Of a stretch of DNA of 22,606 bases, positions 3,143-19,853 are shown piece after piece. The notes below the pieces were generated by a model. It saw nothing but the letters and a program-made list of their open reading frames with translations. It was not told where the DNA came from and ran no database searches. Within the stretch, counting starts at the first letter, position 1; every line of letters begins with the position of its first letter. The translations under genes were made by a program, and so were the position numbers. The stretch is from a virus. Location of the stretch: positions 1 to 22,606 of IMG/VR virus record IMGVR_UViG_3300035126_000030. One strand, given 5' to 3'.

Positions 3143-4909
3143 ATGCTCACTACTGAGGAAATCGTCCAACTCTACGAGCAACGCCGTAGAAATCAAGGTC
3201 CTGTTCAGGAGCAGATGCGTCGTGTACGCGATCTAGCCAACGGTGACGTGATTGTTCCGTTGAACGAACTTGATAAGAACGCTAAATCTTCGGTAGCGAA
3301 CCTGTTGGTGCAGGGTTTGGATCAGATGTCTATGCGTGTGACATCAACAATGCCATCCCCATACTTCCCGCCAATCAAAGAAGGCTCCGAACGCTCTAAG
3401 TCATCTGCCCGTATGCGTAAACGTGCGATGTTGTCCATTTGGGACCACAACCGTATGCAGATGAAGATGCGTCGTCGCGCACGACACCTCCTCGGCTACT
3501 CACAGTCAGCTGTAGTTATCAAACCTGATTTCAAAACTTTGATGCCTGTGTGGTCTGTGCGTAACCCGTTGGACACTTTCGCTGCACCTGTGGATGATCC
3601 TGATGATCCGCTACCACAGGACTGCATTTTCACGTATCGTGCCAGCGCAAGTTACCTGCTACAAAACTATGGTGAACTGGTATTAGGGAAACTGCGTTTA
3701 GGCAAAATTGCTGCCGACACCAAATACACGATGCTCGAATATGTTTCCCCAGAGTGCATCCAACTGATCGTTCTTGGTGCAGAGGATTCACCGAACCTGA
3801 CTGTCGGTGAACGTGCTGGTGTTGAAGCGATGATGCTTGAATACATCCCGAACCGTACAGGTATGCCACTAGCAATCGTTGCTAACCGCATTACTTTGGA
3901 TAAGCCTCGCGGTCAGTTTGATGGTGTGATGGGAATGTATTACACCCGCGCACGACTACAAGCCTTGACTGAGATCGCTATTGAGCGCGGTATTTTCCCT
4001 GAAGAATATCTGATCGCTCGACCTGGTGAGAATCCAGAAATTTTGCAGGTTGCTGATGGTAAAGCCGGACAACTTGGTGTTGTTAAGGGTGGCGACATTC
4101 AACAGTTGCAACTCAACCCAGGTTATAAGACTGATACTGCGCTTGATCGTTTGGAACGACAGGAACGTTTAGAGGGTGCGATCCCTGCCGAGTTCGGTGG
4201 AGAGTCTGCCAGCAACATTCGTACTGGTCGCCGTGGAGAATCCGTACTGTCAGCAACCGTTGACTTCCGTGTGCAAGAAGCACAAACCACGTTTGAACAA
4301 TCCATCTTGGAAGAAGACAAAGTTGCTATCGCAATCGAGAAAGCGTATTGGGGCAACCAACAAAAGTCGTTCTTCTTTGGACGCAAATCATCTGTCGGTG
4401 AAGAAACCTATACGCCAAACAAACTTTGGCAAACAGATTTCCATTATGTCGCATACTCTGCGGCAGGCTCCGATGTGAACTCGCTGATAGTCGGCCTCGG
4501 TCAACGACTCGGAACAGGACTTATGTCTAAAGAATCCGCTCGCGAAGCCGACCCGCTTATCAGCGACCCAGACCTAGAACATGACCGCATCATCGCAGAA
4601 GGAGTTGAGTCTGCTCTACTTACGAGTATTCAACAACAGGCTTCGGACCCTAATGGTCCGTATCAGCCAGAAGATTTGGCATATCTAACCAAGCTTGTTG
4701 TCGAGCAAGACGTACCGCTGTTTGACGCTGTTCGTCGTACCGATCAACGCGCTAAGGATCGTCAGGCAACACCTGCACCAGCAGGCGCACCTGAAACAAT
4801 GCCAGGTCTTGCGATGCCACAGATGGGCGGACAGCAACCAATGGGTCCACCAGCAGGGCCGCAGGGCGCACCACCAATCGATCAACTACTTGCACAACTC
4901 GGAGGGTAA
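3143..4909 (+). CDS. Portal protein
   Basis: The portal forms the dodecameric ring at one capsid vertex through which DNA enters and leaves. The call rests on position directly after terminase, on size (588 residues, within the portal range) and on the character of the sequence: a helical N-terminus with many charged residues, a mixed alpha/beta body, and a C-terminal tail. The tail from about residue 541 is rich in Pro, Gln, Gly and Met and ends in a short helix (IDQLLAQLGG). Such tails are flexible and may contact internal proteins. The start ATG immediately follows the upstream TAA. The product is recognised by general resemblance to portals of actinobacterial and marine phages rather than by a catalytic motif. 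Confidence 0.8.
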   Translation: MLTTEEIVQLYEQRRRNQGPVQEQMRRVRDLANGDVIVPLNELDKNAKSSVANLLVQGLDQMSMRVTSTMPSPYFPPIKEGSERSKSSARMRKRAMLSIWDHNRMQMKMRRRARHLLGYSQSAVVIKPDFKTLMPVWSVRNPLDTFAAPVDDPDDPLPQDCIFTYRASASYLLQNYGELVLGKLRLGKIAADTKYTMLEYVSPECIQLIVLGAEDSPNLTVGERAGVEAMMLEYIPNRTGMPLAIVANRITLDKPRGQFDGVMGMYYTRARLQALTEIAIERGIFPEEYLIARPGENPEILQVADGKAGQLGVVKGGDIQQLQLNPGYKTDTALDRLERQERLEGAIPAEFGGESASNIRTGRRGESVLSATVDFRVQEAQTTFEQSILEEDKVAIAIEKAYWGNQQKSFFFGRKSSVGEETYTPNKLWQTDFHYVAYSAAGSDVNSLIVGLGQRLGTGLMSKESAREADPLISDPDLEHDRIIAEGVESALLTSIQQQASDPNGPYQPEDLAYLTKLVVEQDVPLFDAVRRTDQRAKDRQATPAPAGAPETMPGLAMPQMGGQQPMGPPAGPQGAPPIDQLLAQLGG

Positions 4910-5284: not shown

Positions 5285-5589
5285 ACTTAGAGGATGCGCT
5301 GAAGATACGATCCGAAGTTGATTCATACAACGAATCTCAGAAACGGGTTAAGCAGTATCAAGAGATGTATGATGAGAAAATGGCTGAGGCTTTGGGACGG
5401 GCTTACGCTCAATATCATTGGGTTGCCCCAGAAATTCTTGTGCCGATGGTTTTGTCTGGTCAGGAATCTATGTTGCGTGAAGTTTCTAAAGTTTCCGCTA
5501 AAGAGGCGATGTCTAGCGGTTTAACTCCTCACATGATGCGCCAGCAGTATCGGGATAAGTATGTTCCAAAGGTGGCGTTGAATTGGTAA
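5281..5589 (+). CDS. Hypothetical small helical protein
   Basis: This 102-residue protein is predicted to be almost entirely helical, with a charged amphipathic first half (residues about 1-45) and a second half around the phrase APEILVPMVLSGQ. It overlaps the preceding stop by four bases (ATGA) and its own end overlaps the start of the giant gene. It has no signal peptide or membrane segment. Its position between portal and giant internal protein suggests a virion or assembly role. No family is recognised. Confidence 0.75.
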   Translation: MNLEDALKIRSEVDSYNESQKRVKQYQEMYDEKMAEALGRAYAQYHWVAPEILVPMVLSGQESMLREVSKVSAKEAMSSGLTPHMMRQQYRDKYVPKVALNW

Positions 5590-8500
5590 AGAAACAGGAT
5601 AAGACACCGACAGAACAACAAACTTTACCTGTTGCTCCTGCATCAAACCCACCGAAGTTGGGTCCCGCAATACCGGCAACATACCAGCCTCCGCAAGTTA
5701 CACAACTTCAGGAGATGGCGGCCGTTTCTGCGTCACCGTCAGCAAAAAATGTTCAGCAATCTGCAGCTATTTCTGCTGCATTAGAAGGTGCGGGCTTCAA
5801 ACCTTCCACGGCTGCACCAACTGAACGAGTTGGGGAACGCGCACCACAAACAACTTCAGACAGACTTGCAACAATTAACGCTAATAAAAACCGTTTACCT
5901 ATGGGTGACGGTGCATATATCAAGAAGAACGGCGAATGGAAGTTTGTTCCAAAGCAACAGTTCCAAGGTGGTTTCAACCCAGGTACTATCACCGATGTAA
6001 GTACTGGTGGTTTCGGTGTTCAAGAATATATTGGCGGACGATTTGCTAACGACATCCAAACTGTTGTCAAAACTCCGTTTGTTTACTTTAAAAATTATGC
6101 TGGCTCACCAATAGCAAAAGCAAGTTCTAAAACTGTTGACGCAATCCCATACACCGAATGGGCAGAAAATGTTTTAGGAAAAACTTTGTCAATTGCTGCT
6201 TCTGGTGGATCAACTGCATGGAACACGATGGTCCGTGACCCGTTGAGGGAAACCCTGACTGTGGCTATGGCTCCTATACAGATGATCGAAAACTTGATTA
6301 TGTTTTCTCCATCATTGATCCTCAACGACGATAGTTCGATTGTTACTGCTTCTGATGCGAGTATCTGGGAGCAAATGAAAGGAATTATCTCCAATACAAC
6401 TCTTTTTCAAAACAAATCTACTGGCGAAGGTTATCTCCCAGGTGGGCCAGCCGAAGAAGCGCGTAACAAACTTGAAGAACGTTTGCGCCCGAAAATATAT
6501 GGTCAAACAGCAACAGTAGGCAGAATAGTTGCTTCATTGGGCGTGATAGCCGATGTGTATGAAGCTGGTGACGACATCCATAGTTTGCTAAGTGGAACCA
6601 CCGACATGGGTTTTCAAGTGTTTATGGACCCATTGAACGTGGTTCAGGCTCCTAAAGCCTTACGTGCTTTACCAGAGGCAGTTACCGCATCTGCCGAATC
6701 TGCTGCGGCAGCAAGAAAACTGGTTAAGGCTGGGATTGCTTTGACACCGGAAACTATTGCTAAAGCCGATGAAGTTGTTTCAATGGTTGATGAGGCTTCA
6801 CAGTTGTCCGAAACTGCTGTGAGTCTTGTTACGCGCCAGCCTGGGGTCACTTGGTCTGGGGACAGGACGGTAGTGGCGCGTGGTGGTCAACCAATTGATC
6901 AATTTCTTGACATTGGTCCAGACGGTCCGATAAACACAGGGAATCTGATCGGTCCAGGTCTTTACGATACCGATCTTTCCCCTGTTGCAACTTCTTACAA
7001 TTTGGAGACTCGCGCTGGAGACACTCGACTCAATCTTGGCGAAACCGAAGTAACGGTTCCGGTTGTCGGTGAACAATCAGGTCAAGCATACGTCTATGAG
7101 TTTGAGACACCAAAAGAAGGTTTTTTGACAATTAACGGTGAAGAAACTTGGACTCTTGATCCAAACATTCCTTGGAATCTTCGTTCTGCTATTAACGAAT
7201 TGGGTTTTACTTTAGAAAATGCGCTTGAAGTTGAAAGAAGGCTTGTTGAAATAGGTTTTGACTCACCTGTCGGCGGTATTCGACTGCAAAATGTTAATCC
7301 TGAAGATTATTTTATTGGAATAAACGATACCGCAAAACTTGTTGATGTTAGAAGAAGGCTTGCTGCTCCTGCGGATTGGTTGAAAAATAACTTGCGTTTG
7401 ATTGAGCGTTCAAAAAATTATTTTACTAACAGAAATTTGCAGTATCTTTTGGATGATACGTTAGATCAAACGCCGTTTGTTGGGTGGTCTGATGATTTGT
7501 CTGTCGATAGTGAATTTGTTTGGAACCCAGAATTAAATGCTTCGGAATATAAGGCTGTTGCTTATTCAAGCAGGGGTAAAGCTATTGCTTCTGCTATTGA
7601 TAATCCTCAAACTGCTTCCGATTATAGACCTACACCGGTTCAAGCCTTGCAAAGACAAATTGTTGACTGGGAGTTTGCATACAATGGTATGTATACAACA
7701 CCAGAAACGCAAGCAATTCTTGCCCAAAAAATCAGTGAAGCAAAACTGCTAGAAAAAAGATTTGCTGCTGTTGCTGAAAACTTTGTTCAAAGAAAAACTG
7801 CTCAGTTTACGACAGAACTAGCAGGCTCAAAACTTGATAAAAAATTGTTTGATGCGACTGTTGCAGAGTTTAGGCAGCTTACGCAGGAATATCGTTCTTT
7901 CATTGATGAACTGAAAGAAATGTCAAAAGCATTTCAAACAGAAAATTTAGTTGGTGTTGATCTTGCAAAGATCAAATCAATACCAAACTTTTCTTCTTTG
8001 CCAAGAGAAACTCAAAGTGTATTGGCTTACTCACGAATAACCGATGGGGCATTTGACGGGTTCGTTGAAAAAGCGTTGTATCAGATGGGGGTTAATTTAG
8101 AGTTGACTGTCCCCATTGGTGATGTTGGACCTTTCAAAAACATAGTTTTAAGTGCTGACGGAACAGGATTTAGGGATGTAACGTTCAGTTCGTTTCAGCC
8201 AGATGTCATTCCATACCCAACTAGAACCACCGATGTTGTGAATGATTGGTTCAAACTTAAAGGTGTTGATGCAATTAGTTATGACGGCGGTGTGAGAATT
8301 GGATCAGAGTACGGAACCCATACCGCAAGAGTTGTTTTGTCTCCGTCAAAACTAAAAGTAAGAGCTTCTAGAACTGGTGAGATGTTGCCAACGGTGGAGG
8401 CTCGACGACTTGTCGCTGAAGGTGAACAGTTGCAGGTCACAGCAAGAGACATCGCCCAGGCACAAGGATATTTGGATGCACACGGTCTTATTGATGCTGC

Positions 8501-11500
8501 TTCCAAGAGCGTTGCTGCCGAACCTTACTCACTTTGGAAAATATCTGGTACTGGTCAAAATGTTTTCAAAGCCATTGCGTCTGAAGGAAATGCTTACGAA
8601 ATTTGGATGAAGTTCCTTAAAGGTAAGTCGCCTCGTTTGGCACAAAAACTTTCTGAGGCAACTACTCCTGAAGCGGTTGAGGCTGTGTTTGATGCTGCGA
8701 GGGCAAGTCTTGACCCATTGGAGAGCATAGCTCCTGGTGGTTTGCCTGGTTGGAGTGGCAACGTAATTGGTGAAGTTGGGTATCGAACCAAACAATTGAT
8801 TTCTAAAAATTCTCGTATGGCTGCGACACTTCCGCGATCAAATGTTTTGCCGATTAACGATTTGGCTGCTGGAGCAAACCACCTGCATGACACGATGATT
8901 GTTCTTAAAACCCCAATTGAGGCTAGATCGGCTTTGATGAACGAATACATCAGGATTGTGTCTCAGGATGATGCAGCAAAAATCCGTGGTGATCTGTTTG
9001 ACTTCGCTAAAGAATTCAAAAACGTGGTCATCAAGGATAAAATCCAACCAGTAATTGACAAGCTGAAAGCACCTTTGAAGAAAACGTTTGAGGAGATGAC
9101 TCCTTTTGAACGTGTCACGATGAAGCGTCGAACTGAACTTGTGGCAGAGATCGAAGATGCGGTTCGTAAGGCTTCAACATTTTTGGTTTCTAAAGAAGAA
9201 GAAATCGTGCGTTATGTTTGGGACGATGTAGGCAGGGGCGTGAGTCTTGACTACCTAGAGGGTAGTGGTATGGGGCCGATGTATTTGGTTCAACAAAGAA
9301 CAAATGACATCAGCCTGTTGCCGTTTGACACAGATGAACTTGACCAACTTCTTGACCTGACCTCCAATTGGGCCGAGTATTCGCTGCTTGCCCGTGTAAC
9401 CCCTGGTATGGGTCAAACATTGGATGTTCTTGACAAGGCGATGGCTAAAGCTTTTTGGTTGCAGACTGTTTGGAAAAAAGCGGTTCTTTTGTCTGGTCGT
9501 TATGTGCTTCGTGTTGTCCCAGAAGAAATGATGCGTAACTCTCTATCCGGACAGTTCGGCAACGAGTTCGGTTATGTGGCAGAAATTTTCTCTGGTCGTA
9601 TGAATAAAGATATTTATGGTCGAGTTATGCCACGAATATCGGAGGCTGATGATATTGCCTTGAAACTTGACGAGGCTTTGAATGTTTTGCCAGCCCGAAT
9701 TGCTAGAGCAGAAAGTTTGGGTAACACCAAGTTGGCTGACAAGTTGCGTCGCAGACTTGCCAAGATTGATGTTGCTGCTGAGCAGGCACGTCTTGACGAA
9801 ATTGATTCAATTCTAGAATCCGAAGTTGCTTCAGCCCGTGATGTGATGATCGGACCATCGCCAACCAAAGCTGGGGATACCGCTCTAGGAAACCTTGTTG
9901 CTGGTCATGTTCGTGCAAGTTCACAACAAACCGTTTTTAGAAGCGAAAACCCTACCTTGTGGTTGAGGGGTATTGCTCAGGCATCTATTGATCGTGGTAC
10001 TGATGTGTTGGGTTCTGCTGTTGCCCGCGCTTTGCAAACAGGCTCCCGTGGTGCTTTAGAAAAACTGGCTAATGAAATGTTTGATGGTTCGTTAAGAAAA
10101 GCTTACGAATCGTATTTCAAAGGCTTGGGCAAGTTGCGTCCAGATTATGAGTGGGACACTCTTGAAGGTGCAAGGAAATATGTTGAGTATGTAGTGGATG
10201 ACTTGCAACAGGTGACTGGTGGACATCCTAAGTTGCTTGGTGCTATTGCTAACAATGGTGTGATCGTCGGCGGTGAAACATTTTCTCTTGGTCGCAGAAC
10301 CGCATACGGGAACATTCCTTCAGCAGAGTTCATGAACCTGCTCAAAGCCGGTGATCCTGATGATCTGACTGTCCCTATTTTTGCTGAATGGTCAAAAGCC
10401 CCAGAAGCAACAATGGTGTTCCCCCGTGTTTCACAGTTTGATGAAGAAAAATCTGCTGGAATTTTTAGTTGGTTTATGCAGAACGCTTACGGTCGTGCAT
10501 CAGACAAGTTCGCTAGAGTCCCAATGTTTAATGCACGTAAATGGAACCTAATTGCCGACATGATCCCTTTGCTTAGTAAAGAAGAAGCATTGAAACTGAA
10601 GGCTTCCCTACCTGATCTGAACCTTCCGCAGCACGTCGTAGAAAATATCCTTGACAACATTCCACGGGCTAAAGGCACTGGCACATTAGAAAAACTTGAC
10701 AGCCTTGCTGGATATCGAGCAGTTGAGGACACAATCAACTTGCTGTTTGACTCACGCAAGAAAACATTGTTCGGCTACAACCATCGCCTCTTGTTCCCAT
10801 TCTTTGATGCTTTCCGTGAAGTGAGCGTCCAGTTAGCGAAAACTGCAATCAACCCTCTTGCCACCCACAAGATTGATAAAGCTGCTGAGGCTTTAGGTAA
10901 CTTGCAAATTGGTGGACCTGGTGAAACAAACATCATTGGACCAGGGGATATTGACCAAGATGGCAAGAACGAAGGTTTTGTTTACCGTGACCCGCAAACA
11001 GGGTCTTTGAGTTTCAACTATCCACTTGTCGGTGGCGCAGCGCGAGCATTGACGGGTATCCCATTTGACTACAAAGTGAGTGTTGGTTCTTTGTCGATGG
11101 CTACAAGCGTCATCCCGTCGGTTGGTCCGTATGTTGCTTTGACCTACACCGCTATACCTAATAGGCAAGGTGAGGTTTGGGACAAACTGAATAAGGTATT
11201 CATCCCTTACGGTGAGCCATCTAACGAATTGCAGGACTACTTCACTCCTTTGGCTATCCAACGTTTTGCACAAGGTTTGGCCGCTGGAACACCATTTGAG
11301 CGTGTATCACAGTTCTTAGGCAACCCGAACAATGACCCCGTGTATAAAACTTTGCAGAGCCGTACTTTTATGGCTGAGCTTGCTTCAGGTAAATACACAC
11401 AAGACGAAGCTGGTGTTCGTGAAGCGATGCAAGCATCACAAGACAAGGGCAATACTCTATGGTGGTTGCGCGGTTTGACACAGTTCTTCTCCCCTGGCGC

Positions 11501-12377
11501 ACCAATCAGCCAGTTCTACGCAGAACAAGACAGCAAACTGGTTCCGCTCGGTGTTCTGTTAGACAGTATCCGAAAAACAGAAAACGACATTCGTGATAAG
11601 GGTGGCACATTTCAAGATCAAATTGATGGAGTGGTCAACCAATACGGTGATCTTGTCCTACCGTATTTGGCTTCTATCAGCGAAAGTAATGTCCCTGGTT
11701 CAGAGTCCAGTAAAGCGTTCTACAAATTCAAAAACGAAAACGAAGATTTGTTTAGGCGTTATCCAGATGTTGCGGGCTATTTTGGACCGAATACAAACGA
11801 GTTTGACCAAAAGATTTACAACATTCAGAAACGTGCAGGTGAACTTTCTGCTTTGCCCAAAGAAGAAATCGCTGCCCAGATCGAACAGTTGTGGGGTAAC
11901 TTCCGTTACAACAAATATGATCGTGAATTAACACAGGCTTTGGGCGAAACCCCTCTGAAATCCTACGCTTTAAGCATGATGGAATCTCAAATCAAATCAT
12001 CGTTGCCTAGTTGGAACAGGTCACTCGCGTTTCAGGAATATAACGACGAAATCGTTAACTCGGTGAACTCAATTATCAAAGCATCTATTGATCCGAAGTT
12101 AGCCAACTTGCCGGTTATGGCTCCATTGAAAGAGTATTTGGCACAACGTAATGCGATTGTCAATGTGATTACCCGTAGTTCTGGTTTAACTAGCGTTAAC
12201 TCTTGGCGTAATAACCGTGGTGGTATCGTCGAGCGTGAGGCTTTGAAGATTGTTGGGGATCAAATTGCTGAAAAGAATCCTGCGTTCCAGGGCGTGTGGG
12301 ATAGTGTTTTGTCTAGAGAATTTAAGACTTTGACCGAACAAGAGAAACTATTGGTTCAGACAGGACAGTTACCGTAA
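5583..12377 (+). CDS. Giant internal virion protein with ADP-ribosyltransferase-like segments
   Basis: At 2264 residues this takes up 30% of the window. It begins with TTG at 5583; AAAGGTGG at 5568-5575 gives a well-spaced ribosome site, and an in-frame TAA at 5556-5558 excludes a longer start. Residues 1-80 are Pro/Gln/Ala-rich and disordered. Residues about 425-570 look like an ADP-ribosyltransferase fold: RGG at 433-435, GPGLYDTD at 457-464 followed by A469 and Y472, and GFD at 558-560. A second ART-like C-terminal end lies at about 890-925 (GVDAISYDGG from 894, then VVLSPSKLKV). A hydrophobic/basic helix starts at W1297, an LFPFFDAFREV motif lies at 1737-1747, and a calcium-loop-like DIDQDGKNEG at 1789-1798. 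Position between portal and scaffold, together with size, fits a head-packaged ejection protein. Membrane-spanning runs are not prominent. The central part uses more AGA, AAA and TTT codons than the flanks. Confidence 0.75.
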   Translation: MVKKQDKTPTEQQTLPVAPASNPPKLGPAIPATYQPPQVTQLQEMAAVSASPSAKNVQQSAAISAALEGAGFKPSTAAPTERVGERAPQTTSDRLATINANKNRLPMGDGAYIKKNGEWKFVPKQQFQGGFNPGTITDVSTGGFGVQEYIGGRFANDIQTVVKTPFVYFKNYAGSPIAKASSKTVDAIPYTEWAENVLGKTLSIAASGGSTAWNTMVRDPLRETLTVAMAPIQMIENLIMFSPSLILNDDSSIVTASDASIWEQMKGIISNTTLFQNKSTGEGYLPGGPAEEARNKLEERLRPKIYGQTATVGRIVASLGVIADVYEAGDDIHSLLSGTTDMGFQVFMDPLNVVQAPKALRALPEAVTASAESAAAARKLVKAGIALTPETIAKADEVVSMVDEASQLSETAVSLVTRQPGVTWSGDRTVVARGGQPIDQFLDIGPDGPINTGNLIGPGLYDTDLSPVATSYNLETRAGDTRLNLGETEVTVPVVGEQSGQAYVYEFETPKEGFLTINGEETWTLDPNIPWNLRSAINELGFTLENALEVERRLVEIGFDSPVGGIRLQNVNPEDYFIGINDTAKLVDVRRRLAAPADWLKNNLRLIERSKNYFTNRNLQYLLDDTLDQTPFVGWSDDLSVDSEFVWNPELNASEYKAVAYSSRGKAIASAIDNPQTASDYRPTPVQALQRQIVDWEFAYNGMYTTPETQAILAQKISEAKLLEKRFAAVAENFVQRKTAQFTTELAGSKLDKKLFDATVAEFRQLTQEYRSFIDELKEMSKAFQTENLVGVDLAKIKSIPNFSSLPRETQSVLAYSRITDGAFDGFVEKALYQMGVNLELTVPIGDVGPFKNIVLSADGTGFRDVTFSSFQPDVIPYPTRTTDVVNDWFKLKGVDAISYDGGVRIGSEYGTHTARVVLSPSKLKVRASRTGEMLPTVEARRLVAEGEQLQVTARDIAQAQGYLDAHGLIDAASKSVAAEPYSLWKISGTGQNVFKAIASEGNAYEIWMKFLKGKSPRLAQKLSEATTPEAVEAVFDAARASLDPLESIAPGGLPGWSGNVIGEVGYRTKQLISKNSRMAATLPRSNVLPINDLAAGANHLHDTMIVLKTPIEARSALMNEYIRIVSQDDAAKIRGDLFDFAKEFKNVVIKDKIQPVIDKLKAPLKKTFEEMTPFERVTMKRRTELVAEIEDAVRKASTFLVSKEEEIVRYVWDDVGRGVSLDYLEGSGMGPMYLVQQRTNDISLLPFDTDELDQLLDLTSNWAEYSLLARVTPGMGQTLDVLDKAMAKAFWLQTVWKKAVLLSGRYVLRVVPEEMMRNSLSGQFGNEFGYVAEIFSGRMNKDIYGRVMPRISEADDIALKLDEALNVLPARIARAESLGNTKLADKLRRRLAKIDVAAEQARLDEIDSILESEVASARDVMIGPSPTKAGDTALGNLVAGHVRASSQQTVFRSENPTLWLRGIAQASIDRGTDVLGSAVARALQTGSRGALEKLANEMFDGSLRKAYESYFKGLGKLRPDYEWDTLEGARKYVEYVVDDLQQVTGGHPKLLGAIANNGVIVGGETFSLGRRTAYGNIPSAEFMNLLKAGDPDDLTVPIFAEWSKAPEATMVFPRVSQFDEEKSAGIFSWFMQNAYGRASDKFARVPMFNARKWNLIADMIPLLSKEEALKLKASLPDLNLPQHVVENILDNIPRAKGTGTLEKLDSLAGYRAVEDTINLLFDSRKKTLFGYNHRLLFPFFDAFREVSVQLAKTAINPLATHKIDKAAEALGNLQIGGPGETNIIGPGDIDQDGKNEGFVYRDPQTGSLSFNYPLVGGAARALTGIPFDYKVSVGSLSMATSVIPSVGPYVALTYTAIPNRQGEVWDKLNKVFIPYGEPSNELQDYFTPLAIQRFAQGLAAGTPFERVSQFLGNPNNDPVYKTLQSRTFMAELASGKYTQDEAGVREAMQASQDKGNTLWWLRGLTQFFSPGAPISQFYAEQDSKLVPLGVLLDSIRKTENDIRDKGGTFQDQIDGVVNQYGDLVLPYLASISESNVPGSESSKAFYKFKNENEDLFRRYPDVAGYFGPNTNEFDQKIYNIQKRAGELSALPKEEIAAQIEQLWGNFRYNKYDRELTQALGETPLKSYALSMMESQIKSSLPSWNRSLAFQEYNDEIVNSVNSIIKASIDPKLANLPVMAPLKEYLAQRNAIVNVITRSSGLTSVNSWRNNRGGIVEREALKIVGDQIAEKNPAFQGVWDSVLSREFKTLTEQEKLLVQTGQLP

Positions 12378-13159
12378 TGGCTCCAAAACTTAAACAGGAT
12401 GGGACAACCCCTACAACTACGCCTCCGATTGGTCCACCAGCACCGACCACGACTGTTCCGGTATCTCCTGAAGTTCAGGCAGCTCTTGCTTATGTTAAAG
12501 AAGTTTTGGGTCTTGGTGGCGGAGGCAAAAATGTTCTTGGTCTTGAAGGTAGCGGTGTTTTCCAAGATGGTCGGCTAGTTGGATATGAGGGACCTACCAA
12601 AACTGTTGGTGGTCAACCAATCCAGCCTCAATACTTTGAAGGTGATGAACAAGCAATTGCCACTTGGGATGCTGAGGACGTTATTGCTTGGCAAAAACGA
12701 CTTGCTGCTGGAGGATACTTTTCTGGTCAGTCATATCAACCAGGCATTGTTCGCCAGTCAACCCTTGACGCATACAAGCGGGCGTTGATTGATGCCAACC
12801 AAAGTTTCATTAGCGTCGAACAAGCGTTGGAGCGTTCTCTGAAGTTCCCTTATTCGGGTGGTGGCGGTGGTTTGAAGAAGTATCGCATGACTGCTGCGAC
12901 GGATTTGCAAAATGTTTTTGACAAGGTTTCCCAGAACGTGTTGGGCCGAACATTGGACACCGAAGAATTGGATAAGTTGGTTAAGACTTATCAGGGTGTT
13001 GAGTTGGCTGGACAGAAGTCGCAGGCTGGTGTTGCTGAACAGGCTCCTACTGCTGCTGCTTTTGCACAGAAAAAGATTGAGGCTGGTAATCAGGATGAGG
13101 CTGATGCTGTTCAGTTTGCAGGATACGCACAAACTTTAGAAAGGATGCTCGGTGGCTGA
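12377..13159 (+). CDS. Internal virion protein with peptidoglycan-binding-like repeat
   Basis: The 260 residues start with a Pro/Thr-rich disordered segment (about 1-35) and a Gly-rich stretch. At about 95-145 comes a segment with the rhythm of a peptidoglycan-binding type 1 domain (AWQKRLAAGGYF, then TLDAYKRAL). At about 170-205 is a helical domain around DLQNVFDKVSQNVLGRTL, which resembles a conserved segment of internal proteins of actinobacterial phages as I remember them. The ATG overlaps the stop of the giant gene by one base (TAATG). Likely role: part of the ejected internal complex, possibly touching the cell wall. The domain reading is by eye and moderate; no catalytic residues are visible. 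Confidence 0.65.
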   Translation: MAPKLKQDGTTPTTTPPIGPPAPTTTVPVSPEVQAALAYVKEVLGLGGGGKNVLGLEGSGVFQDGRLVGYEGPTKTVGGQPIQPQYFEGDEQAIATWDAEDVIAWQKRLAAGGYFSGQSYQPGIVRQSTLDAYKRALIDANQSFISVEQALERSLKFPYSGGGGGLKKYRMTAATDLQNVFDKVSQNVLGRTLDTEELDKLVKTYQGVELAGQKSQAGVAEQAPTAAAFAQKKIEAGNQDEADAVQFAGYAQTLERMLGG

Positions 13160-13976
13160 GACAAAGAATCCTCGTAAAGCGTATATTGACGCACAAATTA
13201 AGGCTGGTTCTACTAAGACACGTGCTGAACTTGGGCGCGAGTATGACGAACAACAAGCAAAGAAAGCGACGACTGTTGCAAATCCTGCTGATTTGAAGGC
13301 AAAGGTTGATCGCTATTTGCCTGCTTACTCGTTTTTGTTGGACCCTAACAGTATTTTTGGTGCTGATGTTGCACAGGTTTTGGCTGATGCTGTAGCCCAA
13401 AATTATGACGCTACCCGTTTTGAGGGTGCGTTGGCTGCAACAAACTATTTCAAGACTGCTACACCAGAGCAAAAGGCTTTTGCTAGGAAACAGTTACCTG
13501 CTGATAAGGCAAGAATTAGTACTGAAGCGAACTCTTTGAAACAGTTGGCTAAGTCTTACAACTATGCGCTTTCAGATTCCGAATTGCAGGCCGTTTTGAC
13601 TGGTACTCCGATGCCTGGGACTGGTAAGCCTGTTTCGCAGGACGAGTTGTTGAACAAGATGAGGATGTCCGCTAAGGGTGTTCTTCCTCATTTGTCATCT
13701 CAGATTGATGCTGGTTTGTCTTTGAAGGACATTGGTGATAATTACAGGCAATATGCCGGACAGATTTTGGAACGTGACCCAAACCAGATTGATATGTTTC
13801 AGGGTCCGTTTCTTGATGCGTTTGGTAATGCTCAGACTGGTCAGATGTCGTTGGGTGATTGGGTGTCAAAACTTAAATCTGATCCGCGTTACGGTTATCA
13901 GAACACGAAGGCCGCTAATAGGGATGCACAGTCTTTGGCTTTAACTATTGCTAGAGCGTTTGGAAAGGTTCGATAA
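13152..13976 (+). CDS. Internal virion protein, helical
   Basis: This 274-residue protein starts with GTG at 13152; a purine-rich site, AGAAAGGA, lies about 7 bases upstream, inside the end of the previous gene. After a basic N-terminus, residues about 53-105 form a segment (YLPAYSFLLDP ... TRFEGALAATNYFK), and a later segment around LPHLSSQIDAGLSLKDI and QILERDP follows. This pattern recalls internal structural proteins of actinobacterial phages that occur beside giant polyproteins, although I cannot name the family. It has no membrane segment or enzyme motif. The stop overlaps the next start by one base (TAATG). It is probably a partner of the giant protein. Confidence 0.65.
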   Translation: MAETKNPRKAYIDAQIKAGSTKTRAELGREYDEQQAKKATTVANPADLKAKVDRYLPAYSFLLDPNSIFGADVAQVLADAVAQNYDATRFEGALAATNYFKTATPEQKAFARKQLPADKARISTEANSLKQLAKSYNYALSDSELQAVLTGTPMPGTGKPVSQDELLNKMRMSAKGVLPHLSSQIDAGLSLKDIGDNYRQYAGQILERDPNQIDMFQGPFLDAFGNAQTGQMSLGDWVSKLKSDPRYGYQNTKAANRDAQSLALTIARAFGKVR

Positions 13977-15768: not shown

Positions 15769-16737
15769 ATGTCTTATACTCAGCAAAGTTCGGTTGATAC
15801 CGACCAGGCAGCGTATGATCGTTTGGCGTATTTCGCCCTCCGTTCAGAACTCTTGTTCGATCAAGCAGCCGATGTTCAACCAACCAACCAGTCAATGCCT
15901 GGTTCTTCGGTAATCTTCACGATTTTCGCAGACCTCGCAGAAGCAACCAGCACACTTGCTGAAACCACTGACGTTACACCTGTAGCGATGAGTGACAGCC
16001 AAGTGACTGTAACCCTTGCCGAATATGGCAACACAATCAACACCACCGCAAAGCTCCGTGGAACTTCGTTCTTGGACATTGATGCAGCAGCAGCGAACCT
16101 TATCGGTTACAACGCTGGTGACTCAATCGACAAGGTTGTTCGCGACGTGCTTGCTGGCGGTGACAACGTTGCCTACGGTGGCGGTGGATCATCTGATCCT
16201 TCAAGCCGTGTAACGGTTGCAGCAGAAGACATCATTGAAGCCAACGACATCCGTAAGCAGACTGCTGCTTTGCGTGGTGCAAACGTTGCAACCTTCAATG
16301 GTTACTACATGGGTTACATTCACCCAGACGTTTCATATGACCTTCGCCGTGAAACCGGCAACGCATCATGGAACGCCCCACACGTTGCTGTAGACACACA
16401 GAACATCTACAACGGTGAGATCGGAACCTTTGAATCAGTACGATTCATTGAAACCCCTCGCGCAAAGGTGTTCACCAACGCATCAAACGGAACCAGCACA
16501 ACTGGAACGATTGACGTGTATTGCACACACATCATGGGTCGTCAGGCGTTGGCTAAGGCTTACAGCCAGGTTGACGGCAACGGCATGGTTCCGAAGGTTG
16601 TTCGTGGACCTGTTGTTGACTCGCTCATGCGTTTCAACCCAATCGGTTGGTACTGGCTCGGTGGCTATGGCCGCTTCCGCGAAGCATCGTTGCGTCGCAT
16701 TGAGTCGTCATCCAGCATTGGTGCAAACGCCGCTTAA
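15769..16737 (+). CDS. Major capsid protein, N4-gp56-like
   Basis: The 322-residue protein builds the icosahedral shell. Features seen: N-terminal helix and extended arm (about 15-45), a segment around TVTLAEYGNTINTTAKLRG (80-98) and DAAAANLIGYNAGDSIDKVV (105-124), which match the rhythm of the N4-gp56 capsid family (HK97 fold); a Gly-rich loop near 136-140; GYYMGYIHPDVSYDLR (178-193); and a C-terminal PIGWYWLGGYGRFREASLRR (291-310). The ribosome site AAAGGA lies about nine bases before the ATG, after a small GGGG-CTA-CCCC hairpin. The codon choice is regular, with CGT, GGT and AAC prominent, as in highly expressed genes. A strong terminator follows. Confidence 0.85.
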   Translation: MSYTQQSSVDTDQAAYDRLAYFALRSELLFDQAADVQPTNQSMPGSSVIFTIFADLAEATSTLAETTDVTPVAMSDSQVTVTLAEYGNTINTTAKLRGTSFLDIDAAAANLIGYNAGDSIDKVVRDVLAGGDNVAYGGGGSSDPSSRVTVAAEDIIEANDIRKQTAALRGANVATFNGYYMGYIHPDVSYDLRRETGNASWNAPHVAVDTQNIYNGEIGTFESVRFIETPRAKVFTNASNGTSTTGTIDVYCTHIMGRQALAKAYSQVDGNGMVPKVVRGPVVDSLMRFNPIGWYWLGGYGRFREASLRRIESSSSIGANAA

Positions 16738-18488: not shown

Positions 18489-18765
18489 ACATCAGGAAAC
18501 GCATCCTGATCTAAATGTTGAGGGATGCTTTGGTTGCAAGATTGCTCACGTTGGTATTGGTGCTGACGCTATGCCATCACGGGGCGGTAAAGCCAGGGTC
18601 GCGACGATCAACGCTAAAGACCGTGTGCTAGACAAAGACCTAGACGCATACAAGCGTATGAGACAGAACGGTGTTCAACCTAAGAACATTGATGGATCAG
18701 CACAGGTTGAGAAACGAGCAGAAGAAAAATGGCAAGTCGAAACGGGGATAGTTCCAAATACCTGA
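18481..18765 (+). CDS. Conserved-looking CxxC protein of unknown function
   Basis: The 94-residue protein starts with GTG at 18481; GGGGAG seven bases upstream supports this, and it overlaps the previous gene by eight bases. The N-terminus holds His and Cys in HPDLNVEGCFGCKIAHVGIG (residues 8-27), a possible small metal site with CFGC at 16-19. The rest is charged and helical (KDLDAYKRMRQNG). The strongly patterned N-terminus, with a Gly-rich stretch after the cysteines, suggests a constrained fold. I recall similar small proteins in actinobacterial phages but no function. The last 37 bases overlap the glycosyltransferase start. Confidence 0.7.
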   Translation: MVKHQETHPDLNVEGCFGCKIAHVGIGADAMPSRGGKARVATINAKDRVLDKDLDAYKRMRQNGVQPKNIDGSAQVEKRAEEKWQVETGIVPNT

Positions 18766-19853
18766 ACCTTGTTGGGGTGAACCTGCCTCATGTGGGGTAC
18801 GGGAAAATGGTTGCAGGTTTACGGGATGCTTTGTCAAACAAAGTGAACCTTGTTGATGATGCTGAACGGGTGGTGTTCGCGCTTCGACCTAACCTAATCA
18901 AAGGTTGGATTACTGGTCAGAACCCTGCTTTGTTGACAATGTGGGAAACGAACTGGTTGCCACCAGAGTTCTCCGAATATCTGCAACTGTTTGACACGGT
19001 GGTTGTGCCTTCGCTGCATAATTGGGAGTTGTTCTCACAGTTCCATGACAACGTGCGTGTTATCCCTTTAGGGGTTGATCGTGATGTTTGGTATCCGAAG
19101 GAACCGCCACAGAACGACAAGTTCAAGATTTTGTGTGGCGGGTCAGAGTGGTATCGCAAAGGCTTGGACGTGGTACTCAAAGTGTTTTTGGAGATGAATT
19201 TGCCTGACGCAGAGTTGCATATCAAGATTGTTCCCCCATATTTGTGTGCGCCGGACAACCTTGTTTACCCGAATGTGGTTATTCATAACAAGTGGATGAC
19301 TGTTGAGGCTGAAGCTGATTTGGTTCGTTCAGCGGACTGTTTCATTTCTGTGTCCCGTGGTGAAGGTTTCGGGTTGATGCCATTACAAGCAATCTCTGCT
19401 GGTGTGCCAACGATTCTGTCTGACGCGCATGGTCATCGAGAGTTTTCTGATTTAGCAACCCACCGTATCCCGACCCGTTCTGTGCCAACGAATGAGGGAA
19501 CTTGGAAAGATATGGGTGATTGGGATGAACCTGAATTTGATGCGATATTTAGTGCGATCAAAGACCTGTATGACAACCGTGACCGTTACCGGCAACAAGC
19601 AGAAATCTATGCTGGTGAGACAGCGGCGTTCAACTGGAACACGGCAGCCGATCAACTGTTGCAGGTGGTGAAACCTACCGAGAACAGGGTGGCAGGGAAA
19701 TGGCAACCGTTGGAACCGACCTGTGAGATTGAGGTAAAACGTAGGGTGAAAGCCGACATTGGCAGGCATCATGTCGATCTAATGCCTGGTGTTAAGCACC
19801 GTGTAGTGTTGAATGTGCGCGATGTATTAAGAGACTCTGGAGCATTGATATGA
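18729..19853 (+). CDS. GT4-like glycosyltransferase
   Basis: This 374-residue GT-B fold enzyme transfers a sugar from an activated donor to an acceptor. N-terminal domain: GYGK near 23-26 at the first loop. Link region: VIPLGVD (111-117). C-terminal domain: GGSEWYRKGLDVVL (137-150, RKG typical for phosphate binding) and SRGEGFGLMPLQAISAGVP (209-227). The family's E-x7-E motif has its first Glu at E212, but the second position is Q220. A further about 45 residues (about 330-374, with VKADIGRHHVDLMPGVKHRV) lie beyond the usual fold and may bind virion parts. The ATG overlaps the previous gene by 37 bases. Its place among structural genes suggests it modifies virion proteins or host surface glycans; the target is unknown. 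Confidence 0.88.
   Translation: MASRNGDSSKYLNLVGVNLPHVGYGKMVAGLRDALSNKVNLVDDAERVVFALRPNLIKGWITGQNPALLTMWETNWLPPEFSEYLQLFDTVVVPSLHNWELFSQFHDNVRVIPLGVDRDVWYPKEPPQNDKFKILCGGSEWYRKGLDVVLKVFLEMNLPDAELHIKIVPPYLCAPDNLVYPNVVIHNKWMTVEAEADLVRSADCFISVSRGEGFGLMPLQAISAGVPTILSDAHGHREFSDLATHRIPTRSVPTNEGTWKDMGDWDEPEFDAIFSAIKDLYDNRDRYRQQAEIYAGETAAFNWNTAADQLLQVVKPTENRVAGKWQPLEPTCEIEVKRRVKADIGRHHVDLMPGVKHRVVLNVRDVLRDSGALI

What the first reader, a model, noticed from the sequence alone, without database searches (positions are those of the whole stretch)
6840..7360. ADP-ribosyltransferase-like module inside a giant internal virion protein
Seen: an RGG at residues 433-435, a GPGLYDTD at 457-464 followed by A469 and Y472, and a GFD near 558-560 followed by strand-like segments. 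Known: ART toxins and phage polyvalent proteins share an R/H-G motif, a GxGxYxT..A..Y motif and a late G-(Y/F)-D segment. Inference: the phage may inject an enzyme that ADP-ribosylates host targets at the start of infection, as T4 Alt does, but carried within a 2264-residue ejection protein.
Basis: partly seen in the sequence, partly recalled or inferred. Interest (0 to 1): 0.68.

Follow-up and report, generated by a model that had tools for sequence, protein, structure and literature searches.

The report
Split ADP-ribosyltransferase-like module in ejection protein
A giant protein that this short-tailed-type phage probably injects into its host carries an inserted, swappable module that resembles the ADP-ribosyltransferases other phages inject to take over bacteria, but it is cut in two by a long insert and has an altered active site, so it may work differently or not as an enzyme at all.

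Summary
Against an alignment of 12 phage ART-PolyVal-type domains, the family of this protein matches in two separate, collinear pieces: residues 405-545 match GxYxT..A..Y and strand 3, and residues 860-940 match the final GYDG strand pair. Both beat all decoy segments of the same proteins and all shuffled references. About 340-370 residues separate them. R433 and D560 occur only in close relatives. The conserved set is S425-G426, F441, G457, Y461, T463(S), Y472 and D896; the strand-1 His of the reference is Ser in every copy. Relatives without the module show it is a ~525-560 residue insertion in a conserved podovirus-type ejection protein. It is exchanged by recombination and is under purifying selection. 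Two AlphaFold runs were too poor to test the fold. Most likely an injected, divergent ART-like domain; catalysis is unproven.

The parts
5583..12377 (+). giant ORF, 2264 aa, probable ejection (internal virion) protein
   Evidence: ORF; no Pfam/PHROG hit; lies between portal and capsid genes; homologous giants of 1480-1890 aa at the same place in related phages
6855..8432 (+). inserted module, residues about 425-950
   Evidence: 19 relatives align to residues 215-424 and 949-2244 with the two ends adjoining; L129 aligns 257-361 and 964-2254 with 43 residues in between
6834..7142 (+). ART-like N-terminal half, residues 418-520 (strands 1-3)
   Evidence: profile match score 28.1, 0 of 42 decoys, 0 of 149 shuffled references
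6855..6863 (+). S425-G426-D427, aligned to the strand-1 HG[TS] of reference ARTs (His replaced by Ser)
   Evidence: alignment; invariant in all 7 copies
6879..6887 (+).
   Evidence: N-G or gap in L127, L139, L100
6951..6998 (+). GPGLY461DTD....A469..Y472, ART strand-2 motif
   Evidence: Y461 and Y472 invariant in 7 copies; aligned to GxYxT..A..YA
7254..7262 (+).
   Evidence: D560 is E/T/P/V in L002/L127/L139/L100; score 17.7, at decoy level
7218..8159 (+). fast-evolving, mostly helical insert between the two halves, residues 546-859
   Evidence: 30-75% identity between phages that are mostly 90-100% identical outside; local G+C 0.37-0.40 versus 0.43-0.49 around
8220..8357 (+). ART-like C-terminal half, residues 880-925 (helix, KGVDAISYDGGVRIG, GTHTARVVLSPSKLKV)
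   Evidence: profile match score 22.8 to the last two strands, 0 of 58 decoys, 0 of 149 shuffled references
8268..8270 (+). D896, aligned to the invariant Asp of GYDG in reference ARTs
   Evidence: 12 of 12 in the reference, 8 of 8 in this family
8319..8324 (+). H913-T914; His invariant, next residue E in L127 and L038, T/R/N in others
3143..4909 (+). portal protein
   Evidence: phrog_104, E 3e-20
15769..16737 (+). major capsid protein
   Evidence: PF13252 E 1e-56, phrog_1357; about 45% identical to Beephvirinae capsids

Best explanation
The giant ORF is an ejection protein of a podovirus-type phage. An ADP-ribosyltransferase-like module of the phage ART-PolyVal (Tox-ART-HYD2) type has been inserted between its N-terminal region and its long conserved body. 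The ART-like core is discontinuous: strands 1-3 lie at residues 418-520, the last helix and two strands at 880-925, and a mostly helical insert of about 340-370 residues sits between. The pocket residues would be S425, Y461 and D896 instead of His, Tyr and Asp. The module enters the host with the ejected protein and binds NAD or an ADP-ribosylated ligand, or modifies a host protein, early in infection; the variable insert would set target choice. Shown: insertion, homology of both halves at profile level, conserved residues, purifying selection, recombinational exchange. Inferred: ejection, a single folded domain, NAD binding, target.
For: Both halves match a 12-domain phage ART reference, in order and without overlap (ref 33-84 and 94-125 of 127): scores 28.1 and 22.8; best decoys 17.6 (of 42) and 16.8 (of 58); 0 of 149 shuffled references each. 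Near-invariant reference positions H,G,F,G,T,A,Y,P,D appear as S425,G426,F441,G459,T463,A469,Y472,P510 (approximate register),D896; G426, F441, Y472 and D896 are invariant in the family. Insertion relative to 19 relatives and to L129. dN/dS 0.09-0.22 and 0.12-0.25 in the two halves; dS 0.94-1.52 in the module versus 0.15-0.28 in the flanks (window vs L002). The reference includes ARTs inside virion RNA polymerases of N4-like podoviruses and a polyvalent protein. Streptomyces Beephvirinae with about 45% identical capsids include TEM-verified podoviruses (PMC11536984).
Against: No Pfam, NCBIfam or PHROG family hit worth the name. hhalign probabilities are only 34% and 16%. With the smaller reference a middle segment also beat its shuffles, so the column-shuffle null alone is too easy. 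AlphaFold models have pLDDT 36 and 44 and fold searches with the second hit nothing credible. The strand-1 His is Ser in every copy, and the residue before the last strand is T in the window. Virion location was not tested.
Confidence: 0.63

Rival explanations
1. Two ART-like domains in tandem, both degenerate: ART1 at 418-580 ending in the first reader's GFD, and ART2 ending at 925.
For: GFD 558 with E574/D575-Y followed by strand-like text looks like a second GYDG...E strand pair; the middle segment 546-700 aligns to ART positions 91-106 with score 17.7.
Against: D560 and the following residues are not conserved in L002, L127, L139, L100; 17.7 equals the best decoys; no second strand-1/strand-2 motif is seen between 580 and 880.
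Confidence: 0.13
2. An ART-like fold without transferase activity: a pseudo-enzyme that binds NAD, ADP-ribose or a partner, or serves only as a structural part of the ejection apparatus. (This can be true together with the best explanation's anatomy.)
For: His to Ser in all copies with Y461 and D896 kept; residue 914 varies E/T/R/N.
Against: SGD, Y461 and D896 are invariant in a module under purifying selection, which fits a retained ligand site; active ARTs with other triads are known (general knowledge).
Confidence: 0.4
3. Not an ART at all; the module is an unrelated virion domain whose motifs resemble ART by chance.
For: No curated family hit; no confident structure; low hhalign probabilities.
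Against: Two independent, collinear profile matches above all decoys and shuffles.
Confidence: 0.24

Closest known systems
ART-PolyVal (PF18760) / Tox-ART-HYD2 domains of phage polyvalent proteins and N4-like virion RNA polymerases (PMC5512222)
   Same: strand-1 G, F, GxYxT..A..Y and the final G-x-D strand pair, in the same order; carried in a giant virion-type protein
   Different: His in strand 1 is Ser; about 340-370 residues inserted between strand 3 and the last strands; below curated cut-offs
T4 Alt (Alt/VIP2, R-S-E type)
   Same: an ART delivered with the DNA, the working model for function
   Different: different active-site type (R-S-E) and a separate head protein; no conserved Arg here
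Giant ejection-type proteins of related phages without the module (L024, L027, L049, L129 and others)
   Same: homologous N-terminal region and body at the same gene position
   Different: lack the counterpart of residues about 425-950
Giant hypothetical protein of Streptomyces Beephvirinae podoviruses (Kumquat gp9, 1644 aa)
   Same: giant ORF at the same place in the gene order; capsid about 45% identical
   Different: sequence relationship of the giant protein itself not significant here; no ART-like module seen

Membership tests
ART-PolyVal / Tox-ART-HYD2 | significant match to the family profile | tested here: inconclusive
   no hmmscan hit; hhalign beats all decoys and shuffles but probabilities are 34% and 16%
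ART-PolyVal / Tox-ART-HYD2 | His in strand 1 | tested here: not met
   Ser425 in the window, Ser in all 7 copies; His in 12 of 12 references
ART-PolyVal / Tox-ART-HYD2 | Tyr in strand 2 (GxYxT) | tested here: met
   Y461 invariant in 7 copies
ART-PolyVal / Tox-ART-HYD2 | Asp in strand 5 | tested here: met
   D896 invariant in 8 of 8, aligned to the Asp present in 12 of 12 references; that this is the Asp meant in PMC5512222 is my reading
ART-PolyVal / Tox-ART-HYD2 | ART fold | tested here: inconclusive
   two low-confidence models
T4 Alt / R-S-E ARTs | conserved Arg in strand 1 and conserved catalytic Glu | tested here: not met
   R433 not conserved; residue 914 is E only in L127 and L038
podovirus ejection proteins | large protein encoded between portal and capsid/tail genes | tested here: met
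podovirus ejection proteins | present in virions and ejected into the host | not testable with these tools
   no proteomics
polyvalent proteins | several enzymatic domains in one virion polypeptide | tested here: not met
   no other recognisable enzymatic domain in the 2264 aa

The most novel reading that the evidence does not exclude
A new class of injected ART-like effector with a Ser-Tyr-Asp pocket and a large target-specifying insert inside the ART core, carried as a recombining cassette in podovirus ejection proteins, whose chemistry differs from known ARTs.
Probability: 0.2. Interest if true: 0.75.

Novelty: new variant of a known kind. Interest (0 to 1): 0.52.

Why it matters
Injected ARTs are known mainly from T4 Alt and predicted in polyvalent proteins; a 2022 survey found ARTs in only about 3% of sipho- and podoviruses (PMC9503650). 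A module that is absent from many relatives, exchanged between close relatives and kept under purifying selection would show that ejection proteins act as carriers for swappable early-infection effectors, and would give a set of natural variants with which to test target choice and the role of the strand-1 His.

Tried and rejected
Pfam, PHROG and NCBIfam scans at E up to 10: nothing credible. PDB sequence searches: only unrelated hits. tblastn of the module against phages and plasmids: none or chance; weak hits for the halves of relatives lay on the opposite strand or in genes without a related product. Two genome-contig scans: no relative. AlphaFold twice with 6-7 rows: pLDDT 36 and 44, not usable; Foldseek with the second model: no ART at any meaningful score. 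The first hhalign test on the whole module did not exceed shuffles; the signal became clear only after adding relatives L127 and L139 and more references. Homology of Kumquat gp9 to this giant: not significant.

Full report
Setting. The window is one IMG/VR record of 22,606 bases. A 36 kb IMG/VR contig from another dataset carries the same giant protein at 100% identity. Gene order is terminase (863-2842), portal (3143-4909), two small ORFs, the giant ORF (5583-12377, 2264 aa), three ORFs of 260, 274 and 377 aa, a 151 aa ORF and the major capsid protein (15769-16737). The capsid is about 45% identical to those of Streptomyces Beephvirinae, which have a giant hypothetical protein at the same place and, for Abafar, podovirus morphology by TEM (PMC11536984). 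By position and size the giant is an ejection protein; this is inference.

The observation. All letters are at the stated residues.

Relatives. Scans of IMG/VR gave L002, L007 and L008 (65-69% identical in the module), L127 (53% overall, 37% in the module), L100 (29% in the module), L139 (26% in the module; its other end is L128), and L038 and L009, which are cut by contig ends. Capsid-based scanning gave 80 loci, among which 19 giants of 1483-1778 aa were used as an outgroup family. Profile alignment places those 19 against residues 215-424 and 949-2244, with the two ends adjoining. L129 aligns at 257-361 and 964-2254 with only 43 residues between. So residues about 425-950 are an insertion relative to these proteins.

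What the module is. A reference alignment was built from 12 phage ART domains: N4-like virion RNA polymerases of roseophages, the polyvalent protein of Pseudoalteromonas phage Y3, a crAss-like phage, Ackermannviridae proteins and others. PF18760 was verified directly for the prototype, Roseovarius Plymouth podovirus 1, and for phage EspM4VN, a near relative of a reference row that was itself left out because its tail is out of register; the other members were taken by similarity. Residues 405-545 of the window family match the reference at strand 2 and strand 3, score 28.1; the best of 42 real segments from the same giants is 17.6. Residues 860-940 match the last two strands, score 22.8; the best of 58 segments is 16.8. 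With reference columns shuffled, 0 of 149 reach either score. The two matches are in order and tile the reference. The absolute hhalign probabilities are low (34% and 16%), and the first attempt with fewer sequences was not significant.

Residues. The reference is invariant or nearly so at H, G, F, G, T, A, Y, P and D. The window has S425, G426, F441, G459, T463, A469, Y472, P510 and D896 there; S425, G426, F441, Y461, Y472 and D896 are invariant in every copy. S425 is placed opposite the strand-1 His by the alignment; the register of P510 is approximate. PMC5512222 gives the active site of polyvalent ARTs as His in strand 1, Tyr in strand 2 and Asp in strand 5; on my reading that Asp is the GYDG Asp, so this family keeps Tyr and Asp and has Ser for His. 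H913 is invariant and is followed by E in L127 and L038 but by T, R or N elsewhere.

Evolution. Between the window and L002 the module has dS 0.94-1.52 while the flanks have 0.15-0.28; between L007 and L008 the pattern is reversed, with the N-terminal region at 0.53 and the module at 0.08-0.17. This means exchange by recombination, not only faster selection. dN/dS is 0.09-0.22 in the N-terminal half, 0.12-0.25 in the C-terminal half and 0.23-0.43 in the middle for the divergent pairs, so the module is under purifying selection, weakest in the insert. G+C dips to 0.37-0.40 in the insert.

Structure. Two AlphaFold jobs failed to reach usable confidence. The order of secondary structure in the second is compatible with ART but is not proof, and Foldseek gave no credible match.

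Mechanism. Most likely the protein is packed in the head, is ejected with the DNA, and its ART-like module acts on a host protein, or on NAD or ADP-ribose, at the start of infection, the variable insert choosing the partner. Transferase activity is unproven, and a binding-only role is about as likely.

Noticed in passing
window 5583-13976 and L024, L027, L049, L082: The giant protein with its 260 and 274 aa neighbours behaves as an exchangeable cassette: phages with 93-96% identical capsids (L024, L027) have giants only about 25% identical.
   Followed up: partly
window 7250-8250: G+C falls to 0.37-0.40 in the insert between the two ART-like halves, versus 0.43-0.49 around it.
   Followed up: no
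window 18729-19853: Glycosyltransferase family 4-like gene (PF20706, PF13692, phrog_2170) among the virion genes.
   Followed up: no
window 8199-8402 (residues 873-940): Weak hits to phrog_30867, a family of unknown function, in both the window and L007 at the C-terminal half (E 0.06 and 0.22); possibly an unrecognised phage ART family.
   Followed up: no
L024-L093: Many relatives of the capsid exist in IMG/VR (516 confirmed, 80 kept); their giant proteins fall into several types of 1480-1890 aa that were not examined for other inserted modules.
   Followed up: no
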